Positions 9,169-49,479 of a stretch of 51,294 bases of DNA are shown in pieces. Origin of the DNA: Phycisphaerae bacterium (lineage in GTDB: Bacteria > Planctomycetota > Phycisphaerae > UBA1845 > UTPLA1); assembly GCA_016935885.1 (NCBI GenBank), contig JAFGQA010000327.1:1-51294 (forward strand), given 5' to 3'. Below the pieces are notes generated by a model. It saw nothing but the letters and a program-made list of their open reading frames with translations. It was not told where the DNA came from and did no database searches. Position 1 is the first letter of the stretch, and each line of letters opens with the position of its first letter. The translations under genes and the position numbers were made by a program.

Positions 9169-9260
9169 GCCGCTTAGCGGCAAGAAACGGCTCACGACTC
9201 GGCTTGCCGCTTGCCGGACAAACAAGTAGCCCCGGGCTCGGCTTGCCGTTTGGCGGCCCT
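9169..9260. repeat. Iterated GGCTTGCCG-type hairpin repeats between xdh and xdhC
   Basis: Three related units follow one another: CTTGCCGCTTAGCGGCAAG (a near-perfect hairpin), GGCTTGCCGCTTGCCGGAC, and GGCTTGCCGTTTGGCGG at 9240-9256. The last 17-mer also occurs exactly at 34661-34677, 38482-38498 and 47676-47692, inside the family A elements. The units lie in the gap between two minus-strand genes of one operon, so they could shape processing or relative expression of the transcript. Confidence 0.7.
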
Positions 9261-12133: not shown

Positions 12134-13020
12134 CCCTCGCGCGCGGGCATAGAACGTCTGCGAGTACGTATCTAGCGTATCTCAGACGGATGCCGCCAAC
12201 AAGCCGCAGTGGCATGGCCAAGGAGCACCCAGGTGGCTGGCTCGACGTGGCAGAACGTCCGGCGCGGCCCGTGCCACTGGCAGCTTGCCTGCCAGTGTGT
12301 AGGCCCCATGTGCCCACCAGAGAGACCGCACGGGCGGACAAGCCTGCCTGTCGGCAGACAGGCCGCCCGTGGTACCCAGAATCGAATGCCTCCGGAAGTG
12401 TCACGGACGCGTGAGAGTGATGTATGGGGTCCTGGGGCATTATTGGGAAACCTGCTTCGCAGCAAGACCGGGCCGGCTTGAGCGACGGCTCGCTGCTGAA
12501 GGCTCAACAAAGGGGAGCGGTCTGGCTTTGGAGTGCGGCGGAGGCGCTGCCCGTCCAGTCGGCACTGGATGCCCATCGGGAGGTGGACGCGCTGCGATCG
12601 TCACGTACACGCGCCACGTTGTGGTGCCCCTCGGAGCGCAGGAGTCGCCGGATGCGTGGCGAGGACCCAGGTTGAACCAGAGCGAGCGTCGCGGCGTACA
12701 GTGTCGTAGGAGGTTGAAGCTCAAGTCCGCGGCGGGCGGGTACCGATCTAACTGCTACGACTCGCGGAGTTTACGCCAGTATTGCGGTTCGGCCGGCAGC
12801 TTGCCGAGCGTGATTGTGCCGGAGACTCCGGGCCGATTCCGAGACCCCGCCCAATACTCGATTCGTCCGGACATGCTGACGGCATCGAAGCTGTTGGAAC
12901 GAGCGGTCCCCCCACGGGGCCTGGGCGTCATTGGCCCCACCTTGAACTGGTAGGGCGTGCAGATCAATGGGTCCCCTCCGTCGTTTGGGCCCTCTTCGTC
13001 ACCGTTGGGTTGAATGCCGG
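12134..13020. other. Divergent intergenic region between the xdh operon and the polysaccharide locus
   Basis: Nearly 900 bp separating minus-strand xdh from plus-strand wzx-like genes, so promoters for both directions should lie here, but no convincing -35/-10 pair was found. The left third is repeat copy A (12271-12477). A small minus-strand frame at 12755-13042 (95 codons, containing SMSGRIEYWAGS and ending LPAEPQYWRKLRES) has a natural-looking composition but matches no family I recognise and would overlap the next gene's start, so it was not called. Confidence 0.5.
12271..12477 (+). repeat. Composite palindromic repeat, copy A
   Basis: Begins GTGCCACTGGCAGCTTGCCT (a palindrome), then a CGGGCGGACAAGC/GCCGCCCG arm pair around a 22-bp palindrome at 12342-12363, an AGAATCGAATGCC block, and from 12411 a 67-bp block ending GCAAGACCGGGCCGGC. 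The first two thirds recur at 43368-43491. The last block and the first palindrome recur inverted at 44760-44866. The 22-bp palindrome recurs inverted at 34592-34613 and 38446-38467. No transposase is present, so this looks like a modular non-autonomous repeat. Confidence 0.8.
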
Positions 13021-27202: not shown

Positions 27203-27335
27203 AAGGATGAAGGGTGAAGGATGAAGGATGAAGGATGAAGGGTGAAGGATGAAGGATGAAGGGTGAAGGATGAAGGGTGAAGGGTGAAGGATGAAGGGTG
27301 AAGGGTGAAGGATGAAGGGTGAAGGATGAAGGATG
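27203..27335 (+). repeat. 7-bp tandem repeat array (GGATGAA/GGGTGAA) after asnB
   Basis: About 18-19 units of 7 bp, alternating irregularly between GGATGAA and GGGTGAA, starting within a few bases of the asnB stop. Because 7 is not a multiple of 3, all frames stay open on the minus strand, giving artefactual HPSSFILHPS-type peptides. The rest of the gap to 27532 holds a GGAATGGAGGACGGAGGA tail and a fragment resembling the GTCGAAAC repeat family (about 27493-27531). No gene is seen. Confidence 0.95.
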
Positions 27336-27532
27336 AAGATGAGGAATGGAGGACGGAGGATGACGGAAGCATGAAAGGAGACTGTCGAGGCGCTGGGCAG
27401 CCAGGTGCATACGTCGTCGCGAGGACACGAGCCGCACAGGCGGGGCTTGCAGTTTGGCGGAATCCCCAACACCGTGACGCGGTTACCTGGACGTTTCTGC
27501 GCCTTGGTGCCTTGACGTTTTGATTTCTTGAC

Positions 27533-28605: not shown

Positions 28606-28692
28606 CGAGCCGCGGGCTTCAGCCCGCGCGGTCTATCGTATTCGAGAGGCCGGATACGATAACGAAAGGCCGCACAGGCTGAAGCCTGTGGT
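28606..28692. repeat. Compound palindrome: two REP-like units around a hairpin
   Basis: Unit 1 (28611-28628, CGCGGGCTTCAGCCCGCG) and unit 2 (28668-28692, CGCACAGGCTGAAGCCTGTG) flank an imperfect 11-bp inverted repeat TATCGTATTCG/CGGATACGATA (28634-28644 and 28651-28661). It fills the gap between the BNR gene and the lyase gene, and the presumed GTG start of the latter lies in unit 2. The arrangement resembles bacterial mosaic REP elements. Confidence 0.8.
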
Positions 28693-32119: not shown

Positions 32120-33364
32120 ATGATGCACATCATCTACATCCACCAGCACTTCTGCACCAGTGAGGGTTCCGGTGGGACGCGCAGTTACGACGTCAGCCGG
32201 CACCTCGTGTCGATGGGACACAAGGTGACCGTGATTTGCGGCGTGCTTGACATCAGTGGCCTGGAGATGGCCCCGTGGTATCGCCCGTTTCGCAGATGCT
32301 GCATGGACGGCTTCGACGTCATCATCTGCAACGTCTTGTACTCCAACGCGCAGGGCTTCATGGCCAGGCTGTGGTCCTTCCTCTGGTTTGCTTTCCTTGC
32401 CAGCATCGCGGCGATGCTCGTACGCGAGCCGGACGTAGTCTTTGCGACGCACACGCCGCTCACAGTGGGCATTCCCGGCTTCGTGGCCGCCCGCGCCCAG
32501 CGCGTGCCGTTCATCTTCGAGGTCCGCGACCTGTGGCCGGAAAGCGACATCATCAGCGGCAATCTGAAGGAGAACTGGTTCACGAGGTGCGTCGAGGCGT
32601 TGGAGGTCTTCCTGTACGCCAAGGCCGACAAGATTCTGCTCGTCTCGCCCGGTTTCGAGAAGCGCCTCCTTGAACGTGGATACCCGCGGGCCAAGCTTCG
32701 GACCGTTCTCCTGGGCGCCGATGGGGACATCTTCACAGAGCTACGGCCCAATGTCGAGTTTCGGTCTGAATACGGTCTTGAAGGCAAGAAGGTGGCGGTT
32801 TACACCGGCGTGCACGGCCGAGCGAACGGGCTGGACTACGTTCTCGATGCCGCTGAACGCCTGAAGGATCGTCAGGACGTCGCGTTCGTTCTCGTGGGCG
32901 ACGGGATGGAGAAGCCCAGGCTCGTGCGGCGAGCCGAGGAGATGGGACTGACCAACGTGCGGTTCGTCGATTATGTGCCCAAGACCGAGTTGCCCGGCAT
33001 CCTGGCCGTTTGCGACATTGGCCTGATGATCCTCGCGAACGTGGGCGAGCGACCGGTCACGCCCAACAAGATCTTCGATTACATGTTCGTCGGCCTGCCG
33101 AGCATCGTGAACTTCGCGGGGCCCACGATCGACATGGTCCGCGCCGACGGAACCGGCACATACGCTGATCCAGCGAGGCCGGAGGACCTGGCGGAGCGGG
33201 TCGTTTACTGGGCCGAACATCCGGACGAGGCCAAGGCAGTGGGGGTACGCGCCCGCGAGGTTGCGTACGCCAAGTACGATCGCCGCCGGATCGCCGGGCA
33301 ACTGGCCGAGACCTTCGAGCAAGTGCGGACGGATTGGAAGAAAGGCCGGCCGGGTCGCGTATGA
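32120..33364 (+). CDS. WbuB-like family 4 glycosyltransferase
   Basis: 414 residues. It starts MMHIIYIHQHFCTSEGSGGT and SYDVSRHLVSMGHKVTVICG, the typical beginning of WbuB-type enzymes (amino-deoxyhexose transferases in O-antigen loci). The middle holds PFIFEVRDLWPESDIISG. The C-terminal domain starts VAVYTGVHGRANGLDYVLDA and has NVGERPVTPNKIFDYMFVGL with the donor-site Glu/Asn region. ATGs at 32120 and 32123 are adjacent; upstream codons are repeat-derived. Its stop overlaps the ATP-grasp start by 4 nt (ATGA). Confidence 0.87.
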   Translation: MMHIIYIHQHFCTSEGSGGTRSYDVSRHLVSMGHKVTVICGVLDISGLEMAPWYRPFRRCCMDGFDVIICNVLYSNAQGFMARLWSFLWFAFLASIAAMLVREPDVVFATHTPLTVGIPGFVAARAQRVPFIFEVRDLWPESDIISGNLKENWFTRCVEALEVFLYAKADKILLVSPGFEKRLLERGYPRAKLRTVLLGADGDIFTELRPNVEFRSEYGLEGKKVAVYTGVHGRANGLDYVLDAAERLKDRQDVAFVLVGDGMEKPRLVRRAEEMGLTNVRFVDYVPKTELPGILAVCDIGLMILANVGERPVTPNKIFDYMFVGLPSIVNFAGPTIDMVRADGTGTYADPARPEDLAERVVYWAEHPDEAKAVGVRAREVAYAKYDRRRIAGQLAETFEQVRTDWKKGRPGRV

Positions 33365-34557
33365 CGGATTCCCACAAACGCTTGCGCGTGCTGATCCTGG
33401 ACGACGGTCGCCAATGCCTGCCTTTCATGCGGGCATTGAAGCGGGCCGGGCATCACGTCACGGTCGCCTGCGGATCGAGACTGTCCACCGGGTACTTCTC
33501 GCGTCACGCGGATCGTCGCCTGCTGTGGCCCGATTACTTCAAGGATCCCGGCGGCTTCACACAGCGGTTGCTCGCCTACGTGCGTCGCTGCCAGCCGGAC
33601 GTGACGCTGTCCGTGGGTGACATCAGCGCGGCGATCGTCTCGCGCAACCGGCAGGAGTTGATCCGCTACACCGGAGTTGCGACACCGGAGTGGGATGTCT
33701 TTGACTACGCCGACGATAAGGGCAAGACGATGGCGTTCTGCATGGAGAACGACATCCCCTGCCCGAAGACGTTCTGCGTGGGGCCCGACGGCGTGGACGG
33801 CATCATCGAAAAGCTGACCTTTCCCGTGATGGTCAAGCCCAGCCGTGGCATCGGCGCCGTGGGACTGCACCGGATTGACACGCCGGAGGAGCTTCGGCGT
33901 CACTACGGCGCCTTACACGGGAAGCACGGCGAACTCGTCATTCAGGAGTTCATCCCGCTCGAAGGCGGAACGCAATACCAGGCCGAGGCGTTCCTCGATT
34001 CTGACAGCAGGATGAGGGCCTGCACGGTCATTTCCAAACCCCGGTTCTTTCCGGTGACCGGTGGCACGTCCACCGCGAACATGACCATCGACAGACCGGA
34101 TATCCAGGAATCGACCCGCAGGTTACTGGAAGGCATCCGCTGGAGCGGCGCGGCCGACGTGGACTTCATCCTCGATCCGCGCGACAACGTTCCCAAGGTG
34201 CTGGAGATCAACCCGCGCGTGACGGCCGGCATCAAGATCGGCTTTGCGGCGGGCATCGATTACGCCGATCTTCACCTCCGATTGGCAACCGGCCAACCGG
34301 TCCCGAGCATCACTTCCTACAAGCTCGGTGTCTACTCGCGTAACCTGTGTATGGACATCCTATGGTATCTGTTCTCGACGAAGGCGGACCGAAGGTCCAC
34401 GCCGCTTCCGTTCTTCAAGTTCTTCGGCAAGGATGTGTGCTACCAGACGTTTGGGCTGGATGATCCACTGCCGCTGTTGGGCTTTGTGCTGGGTATGCTG
34501 CGGAAGTACGCCAGCCCAGCGGTTTGGAAGGCGAAGCTCGGGATGGATCTGCGGTAA
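33361..34557 (+). CDS. ATP-grasp family carboxylate ligase
   Basis: 398 residues. The N-terminal Rossmann-like domain begins RLRVLILDDGRQCLPFMRAL. The ATP-grasp fold has FPVMVKPSRGIGAVGLHRI (nucleotide-binding Lys and Gly loop), IQEFIP, and the metal-binding VDFILDPRDNVPKVLEINPR. It resembles carbamoyl-phosphate-synthase-like ATP-grasp proteins found in envelope and peptide biosynthesis. The expected chemistry is joining a carboxylate to an amine through an acyl phosphate, perhaps an amino acid onto a uronic acid. Translation is coupled to the upstream glycosyltransferase. The stop codon TAA is the first triplet of a family A repeat element. Confidence 0.83.
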   Translation: MTDSHKRLRVLILDDGRQCLPFMRALKRAGHHVTVACGSRLSTGYFSRHADRRLLWPDYFKDPGGFTQRLLAYVRRCQPDVTLSVGDISAAIVSRNRQELIRYTGVATPEWDVFDYADDKGKTMAFCMENDIPCPKTFCVGPDGVDGIIEKLTFPVMVKPSRGIGAVGLHRIDTPEELRRHYGALHGKHGELVIQEFIPLEGGTQYQAEAFLDSDSRMRACTVISKPRFFPVTGGTSTANMTIDRPDIQESTRRLLEGIRWSGAADVDFILDPRDNVPKVLEINPRVTAGIKIGFAAGIDYADLHLRLATGQPVPSITSYKLGVYSRNLCMDILWYLFSTKADRRSTPLPFFKFFGKDVCYQTFGLDDPLPLLGFVLGMLRKYASPAVWKAKLGMDLR

Positions 34558-34730
34558 GGCGTCGCGCGAAAGTGACATGACCGATTGTGCCGCCTGTCTG
34601 CCGACAGGCAGGCTTCGCTGGCCTGCCGGCTTGCCCTTGACAGGAGCTTGCTTTGTCAAGGGCTTGCCGTTTGGCGGACCTACCCGCGGGTAGGCGGGTC
34701 AACCGTTTACGTTGTTTCCGCGCGGTTCTC
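34555..34730 (+). repeat. Family A structured element at gene 3' end, copy 1
   Basis: Starts TAAGGCGTCGCGCGAAAGTG, where TAA is the stop of the ATP-grasp gene, and ends CCGTTTACGTTGTTTCCGCG. The ends are imperfect inverted repeats (CGCGCG plus an ACCGATT/GGTTGAC arm). Inside are a 22-bp palindrome (34592-34613), an extra CTTGACA/TGTCAAG hairpin (34635-34659) seen only in this copy, GGCTTGCCGTTTGGCGG and the palindrome CTACCCGCGGGTAG. The remainder of the gap to 34853 holds a REP-like palindrome (34786-34816). Confidence 0.85.
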
Positions 34731-34785
34731 AAGCGATCTGGTACGCTTCGACGCCCCAGGCTTGGTGCTGAGCGCGGCTGTGGAA

Positions 34786-34816
34786 GGCCGCACGGGCTGA
34801 AGCCCGTGGCTCTTCT
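34786..34816 (+). repeat. REP-like palindrome, intergenic twin of the one in the lyase gene
   Basis: Identical over 31 bp to 30010-30040. Related, less exact copies lie at 28611-28628, 28668-28692, 39837-39864 and 49318-49343; all follow the plan (G)CnCGGGCT-GAAGCCCGnGGCTC. Confidence 0.9.
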
Positions 34817-34853
34817 TCGCATGTAACGGTCCGTCGAAGAATGGAAGAAGGCG

Positions 34854-37442
34854 ATGACGAGTTTGTCTGACCCACGCTTGCCGCCGAGGCGCCGCCGCAT
34901 TGGGCTTGGCGTGCTCGTGGTGGCTTGGGGCCTGCAGGCCATCGTCATGCAGTCGCTCCTGGTCCGCGAGGCCCTGGTGCTGATGTTCGGGAGCGAATTC
35001 GCCTGGGGCATCGTGCTGTTTGCGTGGCTACTGGGCATCGCCGTCGGGGCGGCCGCTGGCGGCTGGGCGGCCGGGCGGCTGCGGCGGGCAGACGTCGCCC
35101 TCGTGGCCGTGCTGATGGCCCTCAGCGTTGCCGCGTGCGCCGAGCTTTGGGTGTTTCGCGGCGCCCGGGCGTGGCTGGGCATCGGGCCGGGGGAACTGTT
35201 GCCGCTGGCGAAGACGGCGTTGGCGGCGATGCTGTTCATCTCGCCGGCCAGCGCCCTATTGGGGATGGCGTTTCCATTGGCGTGCCGCATTGCAGGCGGC
35301 GGCGACGAAGCCAAGCGACGGACCCAAGACCGTGGCACCGGCGCTTCGCCACAGCCCCAATCACCGGATCGGCGGTGTCAGAAAGATGCAGGGCGATGCC
35401 ACGACGGCACGGCCACGCATCCTGAGACAGCCGGACCGATCGGCGTAGGGCCGATCGCCGACATCTATGCGTTGGAATCGATCGGCAGCCTGGTCGGTGG
35501 GGCGGCGTTTAGCTTCTGGGCGGTCGAGCACCTCGCCCCGATCGAGACGGCGATGCTGTGCGTGGCGATTACGGCTGCGGCCTCGGCAGGCTTCCTTGCC
35601 GCAACGGCCCGCGGGCGATTCGGCCCGATCCTCCTGACGGTTGTAGCGGTGGCCAGCCTGGTTTTGACGGTCCTCGCAGGGCGTGAGCTGAACCGCCGGC
35701 TCGTCCTTCGGCGGTGGCGGAATGTCGCCCCGGGCTATGAACTGTGCGCCGAGGCCGAGTCGAAGTATCAGAACCTCGCCGTCGGCCGGCGGTTGGACCA
35801 GTTCACGTTGTATTGCGACGGCCACGTCACGGCGGACTTTCCCGATCCGTACACCTATGTGCCATTGGCCCACTTCTGGATGTGTGAGCACCCTGCGCCG
35901 CGACACGTCCTGGTTCTGGGCGGCGGGGCCGAGGGCCTGCTGGCCGAGATCTTGCGGCATCCGATCGAGCACGTGGACTACGTCGAGCCGGACCCGCGTC
36001 AGATTGGATTGATCGAACCGTATCTCCCCGAAGCGGATCGCCGGGCGATCCACGACCAACGCGTCACGGTGCACCACGTGGATGCAAGGTACTTCGTAAA
36101 AACCCAGCGCAGCAGGTTTGACCTCGTCATTGCCCGACTGCCCGAGCCCACCTCCGCCCTGCGGGCTCGGTTCTATACCGACGGGTTTTACGGCGAGCTG
36201 CGCCGCGCGATGACGGGCCGATCGGTGCTCTGCACGACCGTCGCCGCCGCCCCCGCGGACCTGCCCAGGGCAACCGCGGATTACGTCGCCTCGATCCGGG
36301 CCACGCTGGAACGGCATTTTCCGTACGTGACAGTCGGTTGGGGTGACACCGCGCAGGTCTTGGCCGCCACCGCATCTGGGCTCGTCTCCACGGATCCCGC
36401 CGAACTGGCCCGGCGCTACGCGCACCTCGGCATCCAGTCGCCCTTCTTCCATCCCCTGATGTTCGAGGCAACAGATCAGCTCGACCCCGAGAAGCTCCAG
36501 GCGCGGGCCGAACAACTCGACGCCGCCGCCAACGTCGAGATCAGCACGGATATGCGGCCCGTGGTCTACGTGCAACGCCTTGCCTTGTGGGAGCAGATGA
36601 CAAGCGGGCAGGCCGGCCGCGTGATCGGGCAGCTTCGATCGGTCAGTTGGCCGATGCTGACAACGGCGTTGGCCGTCATTGCGGCGGTCACACTGATCGC
36701 ATGCCGCCTTCGCAGCCGCTCGCAAACCGGGTTGAAGTCTGCGGATCTCAATCCGTGGGCCTCCGGTGTCATCGTCCTGTCAGTCGGCACAACCGGTTTC
36801 GCGACGATGGCGCTGAGCGTCGTTTGGCTGTTCGCCTTCCAGAACCTGTACGGCTATGTCTATTCCCGCATCGGCTGGATCATCGCCCTGTTCATGGCCG
36901 GCCTGGTCATTGGCTGCTGGCTGATCAGCAGGCGATCGAAGCGCTTCGACGACGCGGCCAACGGGAAGGATGCAACGTGTGACGTCCGCCGGGCAGGCCA
37001 CGAGACGTTATGGCGACGCCTGATCGCCGTCGATGTGCTGATCGCCTTGCTGGCCCTTGCGGTCCCATTCGTCCTACCGGTGCTCGGCGACTTGCAGGAC
37101 TCGCGGTCGGCCTTCGTGTTGGTCGAATGGGCCGTCTCGATCATGGTTGGCCTGACTGGCATCCTGTGCGGCGCCGCCTTCGCGCTGGCCGGCGGCCTGC
37201 AACTCGCCCTAACGGGCCGTGTCGATACTGCCGCTGGCAGCGTCGTCGGTGCCGACCACGCGGGCGCTTGCCTCGGCGCCTTGTTGACCGGCATCTTGCT
37301 GGTGCCCGTCTTCGGCACCGCGGCGGCGGCGTATCTGCTGGTCGGGATCAAGGTTTGTTCCGCCGTCCTCTTGCTGCTTGTCTGGAAGACCTCCCACACC
37401 GTCCGGGAGCCAACACTTGCTCCCAAGGACAGGCGCGATTAA
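34854..37442 (+). CDS. Membrane protein with spermidine synthase-like domain
   Basis: 862 residues. A block of about six membrane helices (10-150 and 205-290) precedes a Rossmann methyltransferase-like domain at about 295-530 with VLVLGGGAEGLLAEIL, VDYVEPDP and VHHVDARYF. A second block of helices fills the C-terminal third. This is the layout of the large membrane-bound 'spermidine synthase' proteins; their true reaction is unproven, so polyamine synthesis is not asserted. Residues about 150-199, between FPLACRIAGG and ADIYALESIGSLVGG, hold a Gln/Arg/Asp/His-rich stretch encoded by repeat-like DNA (GTGGCACCGGCGCTTCGCCA), apparently inserted. The ribosome-binding site is GGAAGAAGG. The gene stands alone. 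Confidence 0.8.
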   Translation: MTSLSDPRLPPRRRRIGLGVLVVAWGLQAIVMQSLLVREALVLMFGSEFAWGIVLFAWLLGIAVGAAAGGWAAGRLRRADVALVAVLMALSVAACAELWVFRGARAWLGIGPGELLPLAKTALAAMLFISPASALLGMAFPLACRIAGGGDEAKRRTQDRGTGASPQPQSPDRRCQKDAGRCHDGTATHPETAGPIGVGPIADIYALESIGSLVGGAAFSFWAVEHLAPIETAMLCVAITAAASAGFLAATARGRFGPILLTVVAVASLVLTVLAGRELNRRLVLRRWRNVAPGYELCAEAESKYQNLAVGRRLDQFTLYCDGHVTADFPDPYTYVPLAHFWMCEHPAPRHVLVLGGGAEGLLAEILRHPIEHVDYVEPDPRQIGLIEPYLPEADRRAIHDQRVTVHHVDARYFVKTQRSRFDLVIARLPEPTSALRARFYTDGFYGELRRAMTGRSVLCTTVAAAPADLPRATADYVASIRATLERHFPYVTVGWGDTAQVLAATASGLVSTDPAELARRYAHLGIQSPFFHPLMFEATDQLDPEKLQARAEQLDAAANVEISTDMRPVVYVQRLALWEQMTSGQAGRVIGQLRSVSWPMLTTALAVIAAVTLIACRLRSRSQTGLKSADLNPWASGVIVLSVGTTGFATMALSVVWLFAFQNLYGYVYSRIGWIIALFMAGLVIGCWLISRRSKRFDDAANGKDATCDVRRAGHETLWRRLIAVDVLIALLALAVPFVLPVLGDLQDSRSAFVLVEWAVSIMVGLTGILCGAAFALAGGLQLALTGRVDTAAGSVVGADHAGACLGALLTGILLVPVFGTAAAAYLLVGIKVCSAVLLLLVWKTSHTVREPTLAPKDRRD
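35305..35450 (+). repeat. Repeat-like insertion in the spermidine synthase-like gene
   Basis: Contains ACCGTGGCACCGGCGCTTCG, resembling the core of family B repeats, and further GC palindromes. It is in frame and adds about 45 residues of low hydrophobicity between two membrane helices where relatives have a short loop. Confidence 0.55.
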
Positions 37443-37741
37443 AGCACTTCACGGTCGGATGCACCTGGTGGCACCGCCGCCAAAGGCGGTGGATTCACGG
37501 GCGGGACGCCCATTCCACAGACGCCCATGCCACAGAGGCTACGGACGACAGATCTTCAAGGCCGCCGAGACCTCAGGCCGTGGAGGTTCCGGGGCACACA
37601 CCATTTGCCCGCTGTTCGCTCTCGTGGGGTGCGGGGCCGACGCGCGATTCGCGTGGGTGTTCGAATCGTAGTGCATTGGCGCCCTCAGTCGCCAATTGTA
37701 TGGTGCCTTCGCCTGTGACCGCTGATGCAGGGCCACGAAGC
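37443..37741. other. Intergenic region with GC hairpins, no gene seen
   Basis: About 300 bp between two plus-strand genes. It has a GGTGGCACCGCC/GGCGGTGG hairpin at about 37467-37491, directly after the upstream gene and possibly a factor-independent end of transcription, though without a T-run. CCCATTCCACAGACGCCCAT repeats and a GCGATTCGCGTGGGTGTTCG stretch follow. Open frames crossing it show no protein character until the ATG at 37742. Confidence 0.5.
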
Positions 37742-38380
37742 ATGACGCAGTCTTCTTCAACTGCTGACGTCCCGGATGAAACCCCCGCTGGATCCGGTCC
37801 AAAGGCGGAAGGCGATTTGACCAAGCCCGATCTGCCCGAATTGAAGGACTGTCCCGTCTGCGAATACCCGTTGATTGGCTTGCCCAGGAGGCATCGATGC
37901 CCGGAATGTGGGTTCGAGTATGACGAGCACACGCGGATTTGGCAGGCGCGGCGTCCTTGGAGGCTTTGGAAAGCAGTGTCTCTGCTCATGAACGGCGTGG
38001 CGTTCTGCTTCTTCGCGCTGGGTGCGTATCTTTTCGCCTTTACGTCGCTTGCGTTGCGATGGGTAGCGCCTGTCCTCGCCGCCTTCTATGCGTGCTGTTT
38101 CGTCTATCAGTGGATCTTGAATCGTCGCCGGGAGTACGTGGCCGTCACGCCAGGCGGTGTGATCGTACGAATGTACGGGACCAAACCAAGAGCCGTGCCG
38201 TGGTGTGATGTGTTGATGGTTGGCGGCGTGGGTGCAAGCGCCGCGCCAGGGTGGACGGTTCTTCACACGAAGCGAGGGCGATACCGCATCGGCCTGGCCC
38301 TGCGAGACCCAGTGGAGGCGCAAGCGCTCGCCGAGGCCGTCGAAGATGGAAAGAAACGCTACGGGGCTGGAGCGTCGTAG
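37742..38380 (+). CDS. Small membrane protein with N-terminal zinc ribbon
   Basis: 212 residues. Cysteines CPVC (37, 40) and CPEC (53, 56) with LPRRHRCPECGFEYDEHTR form a zinc ribbon of the type common in planctomycete membrane proteins. Two membrane helices follow (about 79-100 and 105-127). A C-terminal cytoplasmic domain of beta strands (YVAVTPGGVIVRMYG, WTVLHTKRGRYRIGLALRDP) may have a PH-like fold. The ATG at 37742 was chosen because the open frame upstream runs through the repeat-rich gap and the end of the previous gene. Function is unknown. Confidence 0.7.
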   Translation: MTQSSSTADVPDETPAGSGPKAEGDLTKPDLPELKDCPVCEYPLIGLPRRHRCPECGFEYDEHTRIWQARRPWRLWKAVSLLMNGVAFCFFALGAYLFAFTSLALRWVAPVLAAFYACCFVYQWILNRRREYVAVTPGGVIVRMYGTKPRAVPWCDVLMVGGVGASAAPGWTVLHTKRGRYRIGLALRDPVEAQALAEAVEDGKKRYGAGAS

Positions 38381-38404
38381 ACGCCGTCACCGCTGTCCGA
38401 TTCG

Positions 38405-38550
38405 CCGGTCAGGCGTCGCGCGAAAATGACATGACCGATTGTGCCGCCTGTCTGCCGACAGGCAGGCTTGGCTGGCTCGCCGGCTTGCCGTTTGGCGGAC
38501 CTGCCCGCGGGCAGGCGGGTCAACCGTTTATACTGTCTCTGCGCGGCTCC
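38405..38550 (+). repeat. Family A structured element, copy 2
   Basis: Begins CGGTCAGGCGTCGCGCGAAA 25 bp after the zinc-ribbon gene's stop and ends ACTGTCTCTGCGCGGCTCC. It has the same internal 22-bp palindrome (38446-38467), GGCTTGCCGTTTGGCGG (38482-38498) and a TGCCCGCGGGCA palindrome as copy 1, but lacks the extra hairpin. The rest of the gap to 38638 shows no gene. Confidence 0.85.
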
Positions 38551-38638
38551 ATATGGGTGCATGTGCCGGGCCTGGTCATCGCTGCTTCAATGTGTGCTTG
38601 CCCTCAGGACGATCGAAGATCCTGGCCGGATGCCGTGG

Positions 38639-39231
38639 TCACCACGGCTTAAACGTCTCGCGGACACGGGCGAGGTCCAGAACAAAACCAGCCACCGCCT
38701 GGCTGGCAAAGGTGTCGCCGGTGGCGGGCACCTCTGTGAATCGGCCTTCCTCCAGCCGGTAGAAGGCCATCGACGTCCGTTCGGGATCGATGAGCCAGTA
38801 TTCCCGCACGCCGAAACGCTCGTAGTCCTGCTTCTTCGTCTCGCTATCCATGCGGCGTGAGCCCCGGGAAACAACCTCGACGACGAGGTCCGGACCGCCG
38901 ACGATCTTCTCGCGCATCGCCGGCAGCCGCTCGGCGCGGACAAACAGGATCTCCGGCTTGTAGACCACGTCGCCGCCGGTGGGGCCTCGTCAAGCTCGGC
39001 GAACACACGGCCAACGCGTGGGTGCTCGCGCAAGTAGTTGTAAAGCTGAGCAGCGATTTCCATAGCCACGGCCTGATGCTGCGGCGTGGGACCGGGTGAC
39101 ATCATAACGACACCGTCGATAAGCTCGTAGTTGTAGCCGTCGTCGGGGATCTGGAGGAATTCATCGGCGGTCATTCGCAGGCCGCGAAACCGCGCTTCTG
39201 TCGATTCGCTGGCGGCGGTTGGAGAAGCCAT
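38639..39231 (-). pseudogene. Uma2 family (DUF820) endonuclease-like gene with a frameshift
   Basis: Two frames together make one Uma2 protein of about 197 residues. The N-terminal part (MASPTAASESTEARF, then YNYELIDGVVMMSPGPTPQH) reads from 39231 to about 38985. The C-terminal part (VVYKPEILFVRAERL, GPDLVVEVVSRGSR, YERFGVREYWLIDPE) reads to 38639 in another frame. One base appears to be missing in the GGGGC run at 38981-38985; restoring it gives ELDEAP-TGGDVVYKPE. Uma2 proteins have the PD-(D/E)xK nuclease fold, but their role is unclear. It may be a real pseudogene or a sequencing error in a homopolymer. Confidence 0.8.
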
Positions 39232-39275
39232 GACAGAACTCCCACGTCTTTCATCATAGCCTGCTGCGCAGTGTT

Positions 39276-39728
39276 TCACAACGATGTCGCCCATTCCACA
39301 TTCGGGCAGTCGCCCCACAAGGATTCGAGGTCGTAGTAGGCCCGCTGCTCGGCGTCGAAGAGGTGGATGACGACGTCCACGTAGTCCAGGACGATCCACG
39401 CGCCCTCGTCGTAGCCGGCGATGCCGTAAGGCGTTTCGTTCTGTGCTTTGCCCATTTCCTTGATGTGATCGCCGACGGCCCGCATCTGGCGGTCGGATGT
39501 GCCCGTGGCAATGAGGAAGTAGTCACAAACCGGGCTGACGCCCCGCAGGTCGAGAAGGAGGATGTCCTCGCAATGGTCGGCGTCCATCAACCGGGCGCAC
39601 TCGACGGCGAATCGGCAGGCGGCCTCGTTGGGCCGGCTAGGTGGAGGGCGAACCGCATCGGCGGCGTCGGCCGCCGTGGTCACGGCGAGGCGTTTGGCTT
39701 GCTTGGCTCGTGCTTGTTTCTTCGGCAT
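39276..39728 (-). CDS. rsfS: Ribosome silencing factor RsfS
   Basis: 150 residues. The Iojap/RsfS core has CARLMDADHCEDILLLDLRG, YFLIATGTSDRQMRAVGDHI and EGAWIVLDYVDVVIHLFD. RsfS binds ribosomal protein L14 and blocks subunit joining in stationary phase. The N-terminus carries an unusual basic/Ala-rich extension of about 35 residues (PKKQARAKQAKRLAVTT). ATG 39728 was chosen for its GAGGTGG ribosome-binding site; 20 open codons upstream come from palindromic repeat sequence. It stands alone, without its frequent partner nadD. Confidence 0.93.
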   Translation of the reverse strand: MPKKQARAKQAKRLAVTTAADAADAVRPPPSRPNEAACRFAVECARLMDADHCEDILLLDLRGVSPVCDYFLIATGTSDRQMRAVGDHIKEMGKAQNETPYGIAGYDEGAWIVLDYVDVVIHLFDAEQRAYYDLESLWGDCPNVEWATSL

Positions 39729-39836
39729 ATCCACCTCGTGGCACCGCCGTGTCGACAGTGAGGACACAGGCTTCGGCGCCTGTGCCACGGTTCTGTGATG
39801 GGGTTCAGGGAACCTGTAGCCAAACGCCAGTTCGCC

Positions 39837-39864
39837 AGGCCGCGCGGACTGAAGTCCGCGGCTC
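39837..39864. repeat. REP-like palindrome between rsfS and hppA
   Basis: CGCGCGGACTGAAGTCCGCG with GGC flanks, a diverged member of the family at 30010, 34786 and 49318. It lies 87 bp beyond the hppA stop, with another GC hairpin (GGCACCGCC type) at about 39735. Confidence 0.7.
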
Positions 39865-39950
39865 GTCGTCGAGGCAATGTCTCGCAGGAACCTCCATCCC
39901 CGTCCAGCAGTCTATCACCGGCAGTTGCCAATCCGCAATCGTCGATCTTA

Positions 39951-42785
<2,835 letters not shown>

Positions 42786-43039
42786 TACGTCGTCTCCTGC
42801 TGAAGATTAGGAAGTTAAGATTCTCCGTATCCGATTCGGATGCCGGTGAACGAACGAGCCAGGCCCCTTCGACCGCCTGCGGAACTGCTGTCTACCTGAG
42901 ACTCTATTGACGGCTGCCCCACCGCGTCGACATCGGGCAGCCGGCAACACACAGCAGGTCGGTGCAAGGCCAATCGCATAATGTGGCAGTGGCGGCTCGG
43001 TTTTATCGGACGCACCGCCACGCACACCAGAATCGGCGC

Positions 43040-43068
43040 AATATAGGCACGACCCTTCTGTCGTACAA
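43040..43068 (-). promoter_or_regulatory. Candidate sigma-70-type promoter for hppA
   Basis: On the minus strand TTGTAC (43068-43063), a 17-bp spacer and TATATT (43045-43040). Both hexamers are close to consensus and the spacer is ideal. It would give a leader of about 250 nt before hppA. Prediction from sequence only. Confidence 0.4.
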
Positions 43069-43367
43069 GCACATCCTGTTGGTCTTCGGCCGCGGTACTT
43101 CTGCGGGCTCCGTAGGCGCCTGTGGACCGTCGAGGCGCGTGCAGGAGGCGAATGATCGCCACGGCGAGCTGATTCCGGCAGCATCCGCGTGCGGTCCGAT
43201 CGTTGTTGCCACCACGATGGCAGATGCAACATCTTTTGTGGGAACGAGTTATGGTCATCCGGGTCGAGGCAGGGATAGCGCGGGAGGCACGGTTTGTGGG
43301 AGGCCTGGGCGGAATTGACCGTCTGCGCACGAAGACTAAGATGACGAGTCCATGACCGTTTAGGCGG

Positions 43368-43491
43368 GTGCCACTGGCAGCTTGCCTGCCAGTGCGCATG
43401 CCCCATGCGTCCACCGGAGACACCACACGGGCGGACAAGCCGCCCGTGGCACACAGAATCGAATGCCGCCGGGAGTGTCACGGACCCTAAG
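43368..43491 (+). repeat. Composite palindromic repeat, copy C
   Basis: Matches the first two thirds of 12271-12477: GTGCCACTGGCAGCTTGCCT, the CACGGGCGGACAAGC/GCCGCCCGTG arms without the extra 22-bp palindrome, then CACAGAATCGAATGCC and GGGAGTGTCACGGAC. It lies just upstream of the FlgT-like gene. Confidence 0.8.
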
Positions 43492-43533
43492 ATGACCGGT
43501 TACGATATGCGGGAGATACCAGACGGGAGATAG

Positions 43534-44727
43534 ATGATGCCAAGCCATCCATTCACGCGAGCGAGTAGCCTGGGCCTTTCCATTACGATGTTCCTGGCAT
43601 TGGCGAACACAGGCGTGGCGGGCCCGAGGGACGAGAAGGTCATTGTCATCGAAGGGTCGGCGGCGGGCACGAATGCCAATGCGATGGAGCAGGCGCGGCT
43701 GGACGCCCTGCGCAGGGCCGTTGAGCAGGCCTGTGGCACGTTCCTCAGTTCGCAGACAAAGACAGAAGACTACAAGGCGATCTATGACAAGGCCATGTCG
43801 TTCGCGGTGGGGTATGTGACGGGGTTTGAGGTCCTTGATCGGCGCGTCGAGGACGGTGTCAGCTACTGCAAGCTTCGAGCCAAGGTCTCGACAGCCAGCT
43901 TCGAGAAGGAGTGGGCCAGGCTGCGGCACACGATCGAGGCCGAAGGAAACCCCCGGTGCGTGGTCGTCGTTGTGGAGGACAACGACGTGGATGACCACGT
44001 GGGTCCCAAGACGAACGGCGTCGTGCAGAGCATCATCGAGAACTTCTTCTTGGACAAGGGCGTCCAACTGATGGACAAGGGCGCTTCGGATCAGGCGAAG
44101 AATCGCGACATCGAATTGGCGGCGTTGAACGACGACATCAACAAGCTCGCGGCGATGGCGGCGGCGTTCAAGGCGGACGTCGTGATCAGAGGCGTTGCCG
44201 AAGGCCGGCGGGCCGGAAGCTCGGAGCTGGGCGGGCGGACGGTCTACAAGTGGTCCGGCACGATCAGCATCCGGGCGTATCACACGGACAGCGCACAGTT
44301 GATCATGTCCAACACCTACTCGGCGACGAAGACAAGCGTCAACGAGAACGCTGGCGGTGACGAAGTATTGAAGGAATGCGCGCAGGACAACGCCGCGAAG
44401 ATCCTCCGCGACATCGGAAAGTCCTGGCGTGAGCGGCAGAACATCCGCCGCACGGTTCAACTCACGTTGGAGAATTGTAGCCGGCCAGACTTCAAGTCCT
44501 TCGAAGCCGCCATGCGGCCGGTGACCGGCGTGCAGGAGATCCGCCTCAAGGAATTGGTCAACAACGTCTGCCAGGTCGAGATCGACTGGGCGTATGACGT
44601 CGAGCGGCTCGTCGTCCGCATCGAGGAGTTGGAGGTTCCCGGCACGCGCTACGAGATCACCGAACAGACGCACGATCGGGTGACAGTGAAACTGGTCAAA
44701 GAAGAGTCGAAGACGGGGTCGGCCTGA
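43534..44727 (+). CDS. Secreted protein with FlgT/LPP20-like N-terminal domain
   Basis: 397 residues. A signal peptide (about residues 1-30, cleavage near TGVAGP) is followed by VIVIEGSAAGTNANAMEQAR and LDALRRAVEQACGTFLSS, then MSFAVGYVTGFEVLDRRVED. This is the pattern of FlgT N-terminal and LPP20 domains (G-A-A, A-R-x-x-A, V-x-Q-x-x-G). The middle (VVVVEDNDVDD, VIRGVAEGRRA) resembles the CsgG/LpoB-like fold of periplasmic assembly factors. No flagellar genes are present nearby, so a specific flagellar role is not supported. GGGAGA precedes two adjacent ATGs; the second (43537) has the better spacing. Confidence 0.65.
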   Translation: MMPSHPFTRASSLGLSITMFLALANTGVAGPRDEKVIVIEGSAAGTNANAMEQARLDALRRAVEQACGTFLSSQTKTEDYKAIYDKAMSFAVGYVTGFEVLDRRVEDGVSYCKLRAKVSTASFEKEWARLRHTIEAEGNPRCVVVVVEDNDVDDHVGPKTNGVVQSIIENFFLDKGVQLMDKGASDQAKNRDIELAALNDDINKLAAMAAAFKADVVIRGVAEGRRAGSSELGGRTVYKWSGTISIRAYHTDSAQLIMSNTYSATKTSVNENAGGDEVLKECAQDNAAKILRDIGKSWRERQNIRRTVQLTLENCSRPDFKSFEAAMRPVTGVQEIRLKELVNNVCQVEIDWAYDVERLVVRIEELEVPGTRYEITEQTHDRVTVKLVKEESKTGSA

Positions 44728-44759
44728 TCTCGTTGCGGCCTAGCCCACGAGCGCGCGCA

Positions 44760-44866
44760 CGGAGCACACACACTGGCAGGCAAGCTGCCAGTGCCACCCG
44801 CCGGCCCGGTCTTGTTGCGAAGCAGGTTTCCCATCAATGCCCCAGGACCCGACACATCACTCTCAC
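44760..44866 (-). repeat. Composite palindromic repeat, inverted copy B
   Basis: Reverse complement of modules of 12271-12477: first the ACTGGCAGGCAAGCTGCCAG palindrome, then from 44800 the 67-bp block (GCCGGCCCGGTCTTG onwards, with AAGCAGGTTTCCCA and ATGCCCCAGGACCC). The module order differs from copy A, so the blocks move or recombine separately. The gap to purQ otherwise holds no gene. Confidence 0.85.
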
Positions 44867-44956
44867 CGTCCAACGCTCCCGAGCTTGCACTTGCCCCACG
44901 ATGACGCTGGCCCAACGCGCCGCAGACACCTTGGCGGCGAATGGTAGAATGTCCTT

Positions 44957-45724
44957 ATGGCCGAGCCACGCGTACTGGTTCTTCGAGCCGCGGGGATCAA
45001 CTGCGACGAGGAGACGGCTTACGCCTGGCAATTGGCGGGCGCGCGGGCGGAGCGGCTGCACGTCAACCGCCTGCTCGACGACCCGCGAAAACTGGCGACA
45101 TTCCAGGTCATTACAATACCCGGTGGGTTCAGCTACGGTGACGACATCGCAAGCGGCAGAATCCTGGCGAGCCAGCTTGTTCACCATCTCGGCGAGGTGA
45201 TTCGCTCGTTTGTCGATGGCGGCGGGCTCGTGCTCGGAATCTGCAACGGGTTCCAGGTGCTGGTCCGGCTTGGCCTGTTGCCGGGGGCCGACTGCGGCGT
45301 ACGGGCAACGCTGGCGCTGAACGACTCCGGGTGGTTTGAGGACCGGTGGGTCAGCGTGCGAGCGGAGGTGGGCCACTGCGCGTTCATCGAGCAGGGCGAG
45401 GTTTGCCGTTTCCCGGTGGCCCACGCCGAAGGGAAGGTGGTGGTAGAGGGGAACGAGGCCGGCTTATCAAGGCTGGAATGCGAGGATCACATCGCCCTGC
45501 GGTATGTGGCAGCCGACGGCGGAGAGCCGGAATACCCCGAGAACCCCAACGGCAGTATTGGCAACGTGGCCGGCCTTACGGACAAGACCGGCCGCGTCCT
45601 CGGCTTGATGCCGCACCCTGAGCGGAACATCCTCCCGACGCATCAACCGGGGTGGACCCGCGATTCCAGGGTTGAAAACGACGGGATCCGTCTGTTTCGA
45701 CGGGCGGTCGCGTCTTTGTCGTAG
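44957..45724 (+). CDS. purQ: Phosphoribosylformylglycinamidine synthase subunit PurQ
   Basis: 255 residues, a class I glutamine amidotransferase that supplies ammonia to PurL in step four of purine synthesis. It begins RVLVLRAAGINCDEETAYAW; the nucleophile elbow is LVLGICNGFQVL (Cys), and GLMPHPERN supplies the His and Glu of the triad. IPGGFSYGDDIASG is also diagnostic. There is no Shine-Dalgarno sequence; a -10-like TAGAAT (44945-44950) ends 6 nt before the ATG, so the message may be nearly leaderless. The partner purL and purS genes are not in the window. Confidence 0.95.
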   Translation: MAEPRVLVLRAAGINCDEETAYAWQLAGARAERLHVNRLLDDPRKLATFQVITIPGGFSYGDDIASGRILASQLVHHLGEVIRSFVDGGGLVLGICNGFQVLVRLGLLPGADCGVRATLALNDSGWFEDRWVSVRAEVGHCAFIEQGEVCRFPVAHAEGKVVVEGNEAGLSRLECEDHIALRYVAADGGEPEYPENPNGSIGNVAGLTDKTGRVLGLMPHPERNILPTHQPGWTRDSRVENDGIRLFRRAVASLS

Positions 45725-45906
45725 CATCGCCGCCGGCCGGGAAGACCGAAGACAATCCGAGGAACGGTGCTGCATCCGCGTTCTCCGGGTTGAGCGGTGG
45801 GGCTCGACAGGCCGATAATGGCACGAGGGCAGTTTTGCGGCTGTTCCCTCGTCGCCTACAGCAGTAGAATTCCTGCCAAGTGATGATGCCAAGCAAGGAT
45901 GCTGCC

Positions 45907-47625
45907 ATGTGTTCAACGTCACGGATGATTCTCCTCGCAGTCGCGGTCGCAGCCCTGACCACGACGGCGTGTAACCGGATGCCCGCCCCGTTTGAGGTGA
46001 AAGATCGTTCGCCGCGGGCCGATCGGGACGCGCCGTTTGACCCGCCAAACACGTATCCAGGGTGGGCGTACGACAGTCCCAGCTACATGAAGCCGGCGGG
46101 GGAATTGGAGCCGGCGCCGCGTGCAAAGGCGGGCGATCCGCTCCACTACTTCACAAAAGAGACGCTGGTGGAAATTCGGCAACCGTCCGGGTACGAGCCG
46201 GAGGAGATCCCGCGAGTCGCGATCTGGTGGACGGACAACAACGGCTTCCACTGGCACAAGGGCGGCTACTTCGGTCGGGGGCAGACGTTCTTTCCATTCG
46301 AGGTGGAGGAGGACGGCGATTACGGCATCCGCTTTGTCGGCCCGGGGCAGACACCGGCCGTCCATACGCCGGCCTACCCTGAACGTGTCTACCACGTTGA
46401 CACCACGGTGCCCGACGTCGAGGTGACGATCGACCCCGAACAGAGTTGGTATCAGGTCGGCCAGCCGATCACGATCGCTTGGCGCGCCGATGACTATCAT
46501 CTCCTCGAATACCCGGTCTGCGTCAGCCTACTGATGGATTTCACGACCGACGAACCGAAGGTGGTTGAGTTGCAGCGCGACCTCGACCACGAGGGATCCA
46601 TCACTTTCGAGATACCGACAGAAGCACTGGATCACGAGATCAGGTTTCGCGTCGAGGCGTTCGATCGGGCGGACAACCTTGGCCTCGCTTATTCCCACGC
46701 GATTCAGGTGGTGGAGCAGACACTTGCCGCCGCGAGCGAAGTGGAAGACGACCTCCTTGAGACGAGCGACACGGGCGAGACGTTCACCGACTACGACGAA
46801 TCGTCGCCGGTCGCTGATCCGGCGGAAGTGCCCCCGCGAACAGAGGCTGACATAGCGGCCGACGCGAGCGGTGCGGACGGCTATGCGACCTCCTCCACCG
46901 ACACGATCAACGCGGCGGAGTTCAGCCTGTTGGGTGGTGGTCCTGTAGTGGTTCCGTTTGCCCGCGCGGACGCACGGTCCCCGATGGGCGAGGACCGACT
47001 CGCCTGGCATGGCCCGACGGCTTCCGCATTCCCGAGTGGGGGCGCAGTGGACGGCCAACGGTCGCCCGGCGGCCTTTTTGACACGGATTTGCCTGTACCG
47101 GCCGATTCGGTGGACGACGAGCTGGCGGGCGGCGGAGATCCTCAGGCCGCGGATCAGGAAACGACGGACCCCACCGATGCCGAGGCAATCACCATGGTGC
47201 CCACGGACGCCGACGCGCCACTCGTCTTGGCTCAGAAAGCAAGCGATCTGCGAGACGAGGACGACGAGATCGCGCCGGTCGAGGTTCCCGACTGGATAGA
47301 GCGTGTGGTCTCCAGCCTGGACTTGACACACGGCAACGGTCTGCTAATCCCGTTGCCGGCGACGGTCGACGCCCAGGCACCGGACGTCCGTTGGGCAACT
47401 GCCCATCCCTGGCGGATCCTGGGTGACGTATTGAGTTCACCGTTGCTGACGGTGTGGGCGTTGCCACGGGCGCGCTTCGACTATGAGCTGAACCGCACGT
47501 TCGACGGGCAATTCCTGGTGGACCACCCAGCGTTGCGGCCCGTTGCCGGACCCGGCGCCGTGGAGAGGGCCGTCGCCGGTCTGCCGGCAGACACTATCGA
47601 CACCGAACCACCGATCCTGCCGTAA
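45907..47625 (+). CDS. Secreted or lipid-anchored protein of unknown function
   Basis: 572 residues. The N-terminus MCSTSRMILLAVAVAALTTT followed by AC looks like a lipoprotein signal with a weak lipobox (TTAC). Residues about 30-280 form a beta-rich part with IWWTDNNGFHWHKGGYFGRG and two stretches resembling Ig-like or fibronectin-type domains (DTTVPDVEVTIDPEQSWYQV). From about 290 to 470 the chain is Asp/Glu/Ala/Thr-rich and low in complexity. The C-terminus ends with a short conserved-looking segment (WRILGDVLSSPLLTVWALPR). ATG 45907 was chosen for AAGGA 7 nt upstream. I do not recognise a family. The TAA stop is the first triplet of family A element copy 3. Confidence 0.65.
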   Translation: MCSTSRMILLAVAVAALTTTACNRMPAPFEVKDRSPRADRDAPFDPPNTYPGWAYDSPSYMKPAGELEPAPRAKAGDPLHYFTKETLVEIRQPSGYEPEEIPRVAIWWTDNNGFHWHKGGYFGRGQTFFPFEVEEDGDYGIRFVGPGQTPAVHTPAYPERVYHVDTTVPDVEVTIDPEQSWYQVGQPITIAWRADDYHLLEYPVCVSLLMDFTTDEPKVVELQRDLDHEGSITFEIPTEALDHEIRFRVEAFDRADNLGLAYSHAIQVVEQTLAAASEVEDDLLETSDTGETFTDYDESSPVADPAEVPPRTEADIAADASGADGYATSSTDTINAAEFSLLGGGPVVVPFARADARSPMGEDRLAWHGPTASAFPSGGAVDGQRSPGGLFDTDLPVPADSVDDELAGGGDPQAADQETTDPTDAEAITMVPTDADAPLVLAQKASDLRDEDDEIAPVEVPDWIERVVSSLDLTHGNGLLIPLPATVDAQAPDVRWATAHPWRILGDVLSSPLLTVWALPRARFDYELNRTFDGQFLVDHPALRPVAGPGAVERAVAGLPADTIDTEPPILP

Positions 47626-47745
47626 GGCGTCGCGCGAAGATAACATGACTGATTGTGCCGGGTGGCTGCCCTGCTGGCTTGCCGTTTGGCGGGCTTGCCC
47701 GCAGGCAGGCGGGTTAACCGTTTACGTTATTCCTGCGCGACTCCT
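47622..47745 (+). repeat. Family A structured element, copy 3
   Basis: Starts GTAAGGCGTCGCGCGAAG, with TAA the stop of the preceding gene, and ends TACGTTATTCCTGCGCGACT. The terminal inverted repeat is clearest here (GTCGCGC paired with GCGCGAC, then GATAACATGA with TTTACGTTATTC). It keeps GGCTTGCCGTTTGGCGG (47676-47692) and the TTGCCCGCAGGCAGGCGGG arm but has lost the 22-bp palindrome. Confidence 0.85.
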
Positions 47746-47986
47746 AACCCCGAGACTCGGCGCGTGGCTGGCACGGCCCCGGCACCGGCGACAGAGGCCA
47801 GCCCGCCACAACCGCGTTAAGCAACAGGCGACCGCGTCGAGGAGTGCCCGACCTTCTGTCGAGGCGTACCCTTGCACGAGACGTCCAACGCCCCCGAGCA
47901 AGATCGGGTGCCCTTTTGTGTCCGGCGCGGCGATCCTGCAACCCACGAGCCGTCGAGTCTCGCATGTTCTCATGATGCGATTGCTG

Positions 47987-49207: not shown

Positions 49208-49479
49208 TATCGACGGATGAGTCGGATGCCCCGTCTTGCCCATTGGGGTGGCCGTGCGGACTTCAAGCCGGCGCCTCCTCCTTGGGCCTTCGGGGGGGCT
49301 CCTGTTGTGCGAAACACAGCGCGGGCTTCAAGCCCGCGGCTCTCAAGGCAGGGTCGTCGATCAGCAGCCCGCTGCAGAATTGTGGCACCGGGACGTCTCG
49401 CCAGTGGTTTTCACGGTCAGGAACGGCGCTTCCGAACCGCTGTTTTCCATTTTACTACGGGCTGTTAGCCGAGAGGTCC
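49208..49479. other. Convergent intergenic region with REP-like and family B repeats
   Basis: Between the converging ends of the epimerase (plus) and the aminotransferase (minus). It contains GGACTTCAAGCCGGC and, at 49318-49343, a REP-like palindrome CGCGGGCTTCAAGCCCGCGG, then family B copy 3. Such hairpins could end transcription from both sides. No gene seen. Confidence 0.6.
49378..49468. repeat. Family B dispersed repeat, copy 3
   Basis: Begins AATTGTGGCACCGGGACGTC, then TTTTCACGGTCAGGAACGGC, TTCCGAACCGCTGTTTTCC and TTTTACTACGGGCTGTTAG. It ends 12 bp from the stop of the minus-strand aminotransferase gene, the same placement as copies 1 and 2 relative to their minus-strand genes. Confidence 0.8.

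What the first reader, a model, noticed from the sequence alone, without database searches (positions are those of the whole stretch)
34555..47745. A structured repeat (family A) sits at gene 3' ends and includes the stop codon of two genes
Three copies (34555-34730, 38405-38550, 47622-47745), all on the plus strand and all directly after plus-strand genes. Two start with the TAA that ends the gene, in the shared string TAAGGCGTCGCGCGAA. The ends are imperfect inverted repeats and the middle holds palindromes that differ between copies, while GGCTTGCCGTTTGGCGG is kept. This looks like a mobile or regulatory RNA-like element targeted to gene ends. It could be a terminator, a transcript-stabilising 3' UTR, or a MITE with target preference.
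Basis: partly seen in the sequence, partly recalled or inferred. Interest (0 to 1): 0.7.

Follow-up and report, generated by a model that had tools for sequence, protein, structure and literature searches.

The report
Small transposon landing on stop codons
The repeat is a small non-coding transposon in planctomycete bacteria, related by its ends to a known transposon family; it inserts at TAA/TTA sites, sometimes right on a gene's stop codon, where it leaves the protein unchanged.

Summary
The three copies are real. They belong to a dispersed family with 87 listed places (75 at 65 bits or more) in the Phycisphaerae MAG CSMAG_386 and a cousin family in a second genome. It is a MITE: a 105-bp imperfect palindrome with terminal inverted repeats, flanked by a 3-bp TAA or TTA duplication (31 of 87 places, one discordant TWA pair). 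Ends and duplication match ISAzo13-family insertion sequences (PF07592) of the same class, so an ISAzo13-type transposase is the likely mover. None with matching ends was found in the window or in CSMAG_386, and no PF07592 match at all in two genomes that carry the elements. The gene-end association is enriched: 17 of 75 copies overlap a predicted stop, against 100 of 1263 non-coding TAA/TTA sites. It occurs in both orientations, and the cousin family shows it weakly. On a stop, the duplication keeps TAA, or TTA plus the element's first G gives TAG at the same place. RNA and terminator readings get little support. The variable centres are subfamilies with inserted hairpins. A new member of a known kind with a notable target bias.

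The parts
34555..34557 (+). left target trinucleotide TAA of copy 1; also the stop codon of the ATP-grasp ORF
   Evidence: sequence; covariance-model border; relatives' C-termini
34558..34729 (+). MITE copy 1, with hairpin modules inserted on both sides of the conserved core
34730..34732 (+). right target trinucleotide of copy 1, CAA (one change from TAA)
33334..34557 (+). ATP-grasp protein gene upstream of copy 1; stop position shared with relatives
38409..38411 (+). left flank trinucleotide of copy 2, TCA (decayed or different target)
38412..38550 (+). MITE copy 2, 28 bp after the stop of ORF 37010-38380
38551..38553 (+). right flank trinucleotide of copy 2, ATA (no duplication legible)
47623..47625 (+). 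left target duplication TAA of copy 3; also the stop codon of the 581-aa ORF
47626..47744 (+). MITE copy 3, the least expanded of the three
47626..47659 (+). 5' terminal inverted repeat region of copy 3
47711..47744 (-). 3' terminal inverted repeat region of copy 3, GGAGTCGCGCAGGAATAACGTAAACG read on the minus strand
47745..47747 (+). right target duplication TAA of copy 3
45880..47625 (+). 581-aa protein gene of planctomycetes upstream of copy 3; most aligned relatives end at or near the same residue

Best explanation
Family A is a miniature inverted-repeat transposable element (MITE) of a Phycisphaerae lineage. Shown: a 105-bp imperfect palindrome (with its target trinucleotides) bounded by terminal repeats GG[AC][AG]TCGCGC..AATAAC, flanked by a 3-bp duplication of TAA or TTA, dispersed in about 80 copies, with subfamilies that gained central hairpins. 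Inferred: a transposase of the ISAzo13 family, acting in trans, binds the two ends and pastes the element into TWA trinucleotides. Stop codons are one acceptable kind of TWA site. An insertion there leaves the protein unchanged: the duplication keeps TAA, or, where the stop overlaps TTA by two bases (TTAG or TTAA), the element's first G makes TAG at the same place. Insertions on or just behind stops therefore accumulate. Any effect of the hairpin on the 3' end of the mRNA is secondary and untested.
For: Copies: 104 rows in CSMAG_386 at E <= 0.1, 87 distinct places kept. Duplication: of 87 places 32 have TAA or TTA on both sides, 31 of them the same (22 TTA, 9 TAA) and one unlike. Window copy 3 has TAA on both sides. 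Empty site: one CSMAG_386 copy sits in a dispersed repeat whose uninterrupted form is in the window at 10-93; removing the element plus one TTA gives a sequence identical over 23 bases across the joint. Parent family: of 14 ISAzo13 elements with both ends legible, 9 have TAA/TAA, 2 TTA/TTA, 1 TAT/TAT and 2 unlike trinucleotides. In all 5 IS loci tested the best match to the MITE end (18 or 19 of 24) is an end of the IS. ISAzo13 is reported to make 3-bp duplications (PMC10045372, passage seen). Gene ends: 17 of 75 copies overlap a predicted stop, against 100 of 1263 non-coding and 100 of 3223 of all TWA sites (Fisher p 1e-4 and 4e-10). Caller-free check: 9 of 31 against 262 of 3223 (p 7e-4). 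Full ISAzo13 elements: 3 of 11 behind open frames of 175 to 278 codons, against 5 of 336 sites; CSMAG_386's own copy, in pieces on two contigs, lies behind a frame open for at least 390 codons.
Against: No ISAzo13 element with matching ends was found in the window (one chance-like match) or in CSMAG_386, whose own ISAzo13 has ends GGGATTGTC / GGGAGCGTC. G012 and G401, which carry the elements, have no PF07592 match. The mover is thus inferred across genomes, and ends vary within ISAzo13: several of the 14 have GTA instead of CGC in the end. No interior homology of the MITE to a transposase was shown. The script that placed the IS ends gave a bonus for equal trinucleotides. One of the 9 TAA/TAA places (C261) lacks a recognisable 3' end. 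Most copies (58 of 75) do not overlap a stop. The cousin family in G012 is seldom at a stop: 1 of 12 exactly and 1 within 5 bp; 2 of 8 by the caller-free test against 73 of 763. A large survey reports a 'normal' distribution of ISAzo13 over the four gene-neighbour arrangements (PMC9208149, passage seen). Gene calls are from my own simple codon-usage caller.
Confidence: 0.87

Rival explanations
1. A structured cis-acting RNA (3' UTR stabiliser, terminator or riboswitch) kept by selection at gene ends; mobility is incidental.
For: Strong hairpins in all three copies (z -4.4, -2.7, -2.1). Double changes exceed the letter shuffles (23 cells against 10.9, 0 of 500). Copies in CSMAG_386 are enriched at gene 3' ends.
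Against: No Rfam match in the window at gathering score. Cells paired exceed shuffles by only 0.5 points, and double changes are about as many in structures slid by 1 to 3 columns (18 to 25). Near-equal orientation at stops, 8 sense and 9 antisense. Terminator-like sites are not above chance. Terminal repeats explain the hairpin by themselves.
Confidence: 0.06
2. A REP/REPIN element moved by a RAYT (IS200/IS605-type tyrosine transposase).
For: Palindromic, intergenic, near gene 3' ends; GTAG/CGTC-tagged REPs are reported from planctomycetes (PMC3733652, passages seen).
Against: A 3-bp target duplication in 31 of 87 places, 105-bp size with long terminal inverted repeats, and ends matching a DDE-type IS family. 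RAYT genes were not searched for.
Confidence: 0.03
3. Same element, but the stop-codon enrichment is only what is left after selection removes insertions from genes and promoters; the transposase has no preference beyond TWA. (This concerns the target bias and does not exclude the best explanation.)
For: No extended target consensus is visible in 31 empty sites. Divergent intergenic regions are rare among copies (5 of 64 with both neighbours called) compared with non-coding control sites (205 of 992). The cousin family shows little enrichment.
Against: Odds ratios stay 3.4 (75 copies) and 5.5 (31 copies) against other non-coding TWA sites, although those are not all equally neutral.
Confidence: 0.6

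Closest known systems
RUP of Streptococcus pneumoniae (MITE thought to be moved by IS630-Spn1)
   Same: 107-bp non-coding element, terminal inverted repeats like those of an IS, targets containing TA (PMC2229807, passages seen)
   Different: Different IS family; no stop-codon bias in the passages seen
Correia (NEMIS) and ERIC elements
   Same: Small MITEs that fold when transcribed; Correia has a ~107-bp form and a ~155-bp form with a 50-bp internal sequence (PMC2229807, passages), like the hairpin subfamilies here
   Different: Neisseria and enterobacteria; no ISAzo13 link in the passages seen; sequences not compared here
ISAzo13 family insertion sequences (and eukaryotic Zator)
   Same: Terminal repeats and 3-bp duplication (PMC10045372 passage)
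   Different: Family A has no transposase gene and is about 100 to 178 bp instead of about 1.3 kb
REP elements with RAYTs
   Same: Extragenic palindromes in many copies
   Different: REPs are 20-40 bp by the abstract of PMC3733652 (listing); here 105 bp with a target duplication

Membership tests
MITE (bacterial) | Short, non-coding, dispersed in many copies | tested here: met
   about 100 to 178 bp when complete; 87 places in CSMAG_386
MITE (bacterial) | Terminal inverted repeats | tested here: met
MITE (bacterial) | Target site duplication | tested here: met
   31 of 87 places with identical TWA on both sides, one unlike TWA pair; empty site
MITE (bacterial) | Ends match an autonomous IS of the same genome | tested here: inconclusive
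   CSMAG_386's own ISAzo13 has different ends; none in the window; no PF07592 in G012 and G401. Matching ends in other genomes of the class; G053 has both a MITE-like element and an ISAzo13 remnant with such an end. Assemblies are fragmented
ISAzo13-derived element | 3-bp duplication, here TWA | tested here: met
   11 of 14 ISAzo13 copies with both ends legible have TAA/TAA or TTA/TTA; MITE the same
ISAzo13-derived element | Terminal repeat like ISAzo13 elements of the class | tested here: met
   17 to 19 of the first 24 bases identical to the ends of the five ISAzo13 elements compared; others are less alike
ISAzo13-derived element | Moved by an ISAzo13 transposase | not testable with these tools
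   needs an experiment
Intrinsic terminator | G+C hairpin followed by a U tract | tested here: not met
   3' flanks printed
Known structured RNA | Match to an Rfam family | tested here: not met
   0 matches at gathering score in the window
REP moved by RAYT | Short size and no target duplication | tested here: not met
   105 bp and duplication present; the absence of duplications in REPs is recalled
REP moved by RAYT | RAYT gene in the genome | not tested
   not searched for

The most novel reading that the evidence does not exclude
ISAzo13-type transposases and their MITEs actively prefer stop codons (TAA, antisense TTA, TTAG/TTAA), with an element end that begins with G so that a stop is rebuilt whichever way the element lands: a transposon that makes itself a harmless 3' UTR hairpin and so can reach high copy number in a gene-dense genome.
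Probability: 0.2. Interest if true: 0.65.

Novelty: new member of a known kind. Interest (0 to 1): 0.42.

Why it matters
It may be the first described MITE family with ISAzo13-type ends. In open-licence PubMed Central, a search for ISAzo13 with MITE listed one paper, whose passages do not describe one; planctomycete with miniature inverted-repeat listed seven, of which I saw passages of two. It gives a simple, testable route by which a short TWA target turns into stop-codon insertions that keep the protein intact and add a hairpin behind many genes.

Tried and rejected
An RNA family reading: no Rfam match, marginal covariation (the 81 rows include one place read on both strands, L070, and the structure-fitted alignment leans to the structure). 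An intrinsic terminator reading. Autonomous element in G012 by pairing exact ends: no facing pair 0.8 to 3 kb apart among the 91 matches. Exact patterns of the 5' arm in genome contigs and viral contigs: 0 hits. Matches in G222, G017 and G183 looked like chance: no TNA at the end; four other genomes have a single control hit. G030 is an AATAGCGAAT repeat, judged chance. A tblastn match of ISAzo13 to the window (E 0.014, 28%) was judged chance. The count of copies within 10 bp of a gene 3' end (31 of 75, against 107 of 1243 non-coding sites) is inflated by up to 13 frames that end inside the element, so I rely on the overlap counts. Of those 13, five regain a stop at the same place in the rejoined site: three had TAG (TTAG) and two TAA (TTAA), all TAG now. 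In C70 and C334 the frame would run 303 and 596 codons further, so these may be true interruptions or chance open frames. From I dropped 17 of 104 rows: 12 opposite-strand repeats of the same palindromes and 5 with E above 1e-3. Counts with '75' use places with at least 65 bits. Two ISAzo13 elements with unlike trinucleotides (L200, L207) were left out of the table and are counted here; L198 ends at its contig end and L201, L210, L211 and the partial ones gave no ends of this kind.
Full report
The observation. Three + strand copies of one repeat lie at 34555-34732, 38409-38553 and 47623-47747 (borders; sequences; repeat finder). A 27-base pattern from the left end matches only these three places in the window with up to three mismatches, and none in 100 shuffles. 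Copies 1 and 3 begin with the TAA of the upstream gene. These stops look native: 11 aligned relatives of the ATP-grasp protein, and most of 22 aligned relatives of the 581-aa protein, end at or within about 10 residues of the same place. Copy 2 begins 28 bp after the stop of an ORF with no Pfam match.

Where else it occurs. No whole genome is held for the window. Relatives of the 581-aa protein led to nine planctomycete loci. One of the nine genomes, CSMAG_386 (G001), has the repeat. A covariance model from 14 copies lists 104 rows there at E <= 0.1, reduced to 87 distinct places. Of 61 genomes searched (G001 included), 4 had matches: G001, a cousin family in G012 with the same kind of ends and another centre, one place in G053, and a chance-like match in G030. 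A pattern for the ends matched in 9 of 397 genomes of the class; I judge six real (G001, G012, G053, G366, G289, G401) and three chance. G401 carries a close relative of the window's form between TGA and CAA.

What it is. The compact form is 105 bp including the two target trinucleotides, an imperfect palindrome end to end. Its ends are GG[AC][AG]TCGCGC..AATAAC in inverted orientation. Of 87 places, 32 have TAA or TTA on both sides: 22 TTA/TTA, 9 TAA/TAA and one TTA/TAA. That is the mark of a 3-bp target duplication; I take the rest as decayed or cut. One of the nine (C261) lacks a recognisable 3' end. One copy sits in a dispersed repeat whose uninterrupted form is in the window at 10-93; the rejoined site is 80% identical over 84 bases and identical for 23 bases across the joint. 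Length classes are subfamilies: one inserted hairpin was found in 15 copies and another in 6 at fixed places (lengths), so elements copied after gaining them. The same two modules also match 4 and 3 places outside the called elements. The window's copies have their own modules. This explains the 'palindromes that differ between copies'.

Who moves it. The ends led to ISAzo13-type transposases (PF07592). Of 7 genomes searched 4 have the family; G012, G401 and G017 have none. In 298 genomes of the class 42 do. Of 14 elements with both ends legible, 11 have TAA/TAA or TTA/TTA, one TAT/TAT and two unlike trinucleotides. Two complete ones, in G283 and G047, have left ends GGAGTCGCGCATAAATAAATTAAACGA and GGAGTCGCGCAAGAATAAGTTAAATGA, against GGAGTCGCGCAGGAATAACGTAAACGG in the window. 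Partial ones in G053 and G289 fit too. In the five IS loci tested the best match to the MITE end is an IS end. Other ISAzo13 elements have less similar ends. ISAzo13 and its eukaryotic relative Zator are reported to make 3-bp duplications (PMC10045372, passage seen). But CSMAG_386's own ISAzo13 has other ends, and the window has none. So the family is assigned by ends and target, and the actual mover is not in hand.

Gene ends. With a simple codon-usage gene caller on 68 stretches (723 kb) of CSMAG_386, 17 of 75 copies with at least 65 bits overlap a predicted stop codon, and 10 of the 31 with perfect duplications do. Among other TAA/TTA sites it is 100 of 3223, or 100 of 1263 when sites inside genes are left out (p 4e-10 and 1e-4 for the 75). 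Without the caller, 9 of 31 end an open frame of 150 codons or more, against 262 of 3223. One of 75 lies inside a gene, and 5 of the 64 with both neighbours called lie between divergent genes, against 205 of 992 control sites. Five copies have the gene's stop one base off the target (TTAG in three, TTAA in two): the element's first G makes TAG at the same place. Orientation at stops is 8 sense to 9 antisense. Full ISAzo13 elements do it too: 3 of 11 behind frames of 175, 278 and 208 codons, against 5 of 336 sites, and CSMAG_386's own behind at least 390. Against this, the cousin family in G012 does so rarely (1 of 12 exactly, 1 within 5 bp), and a survey reports a 'normal' neighbour-gene pattern for ISAzo13 (PMC9208149, passage). 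No wider target consensus is visible.

RNA readings. Hairpins are strong, but terminal repeats make hairpins anyway. On 81 aligned rows, paired cells are 90.3% against 89.8% in shuffles; double changes are 23 against 10.9 in shuffles but 18 to 25 in slid controls. There is no Rfam match at gathering score and no excess of terminator-like sites. I take the RNA-element reading as not supported, while an effect on mRNA 3' ends stays open.

Literature. MITEs near genes that affect transcripts are well known (PMC2229807, PMC10969869, PMC3733652; passages seen). Searches for ISAzo13 with MITE (one paper) and planctomycete with miniature inverted-repeat (seven papers) showed nothing on this family in the listings and the passages I saw. 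Two searches aimed at stop-codon targets listed no paper that I recognised as such from titles and abstract openings (25 of 43 and 11 of 11 listed).

Verdict. A MITE family with ISAzo13-type ends, new as far as searched, ordinary in mechanism, with a stop-codon bias that deserves an experiment.

Noticed in passing
window 1-83, 7301-7383, 49378-49460: Another dispersed repeat (CGGCGTCTCGCCGGTGG..TTTCCCTTTTACCACGG); one copy of it in CSMAG_386 carries a family A insertion, and the window shows the empty form.
   Followed up: partly
window 9162-9260: Three degenerate copies of GGCTTGCCG.TT..CGG, the conserved core of family A, without its ends.
   Followed up: no
window 12339-12366: The hairpin module of copies 1 and 2 (GCCTGTCTGCCGACAGGCAGGC) occurs alone, reversed.
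   Followed up: no
window 27203-27345: Tandem repeat of GATGAAG/GGTGAAG units, just after an asparagine-synthase gene.
   Followed up: no
L060, L063-L069 (G012) and L022 (G001): The cousin family's centre is a separate GGTGGTACGGGC..GCCCGTACCACC palindrome that also stands in place of the 5' arm of one CSMAG_386 copy: palindromes nest in palindromes.
   Followed up: partly
L150, L151, L152, L169, L172 (G366): Five contigs break off within a few bases of ISAzo13-type ends, as expected for a multicopy IS that breaks the assembly.
   Followed up: partly
window 34785-34812, 30010-30047, 28668-28705, 39838-39875: GGCCGCACGGGCTGAAGCCCGTGGCTC family of short palindromes; one lies just past copy 1.
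   Followed up: no
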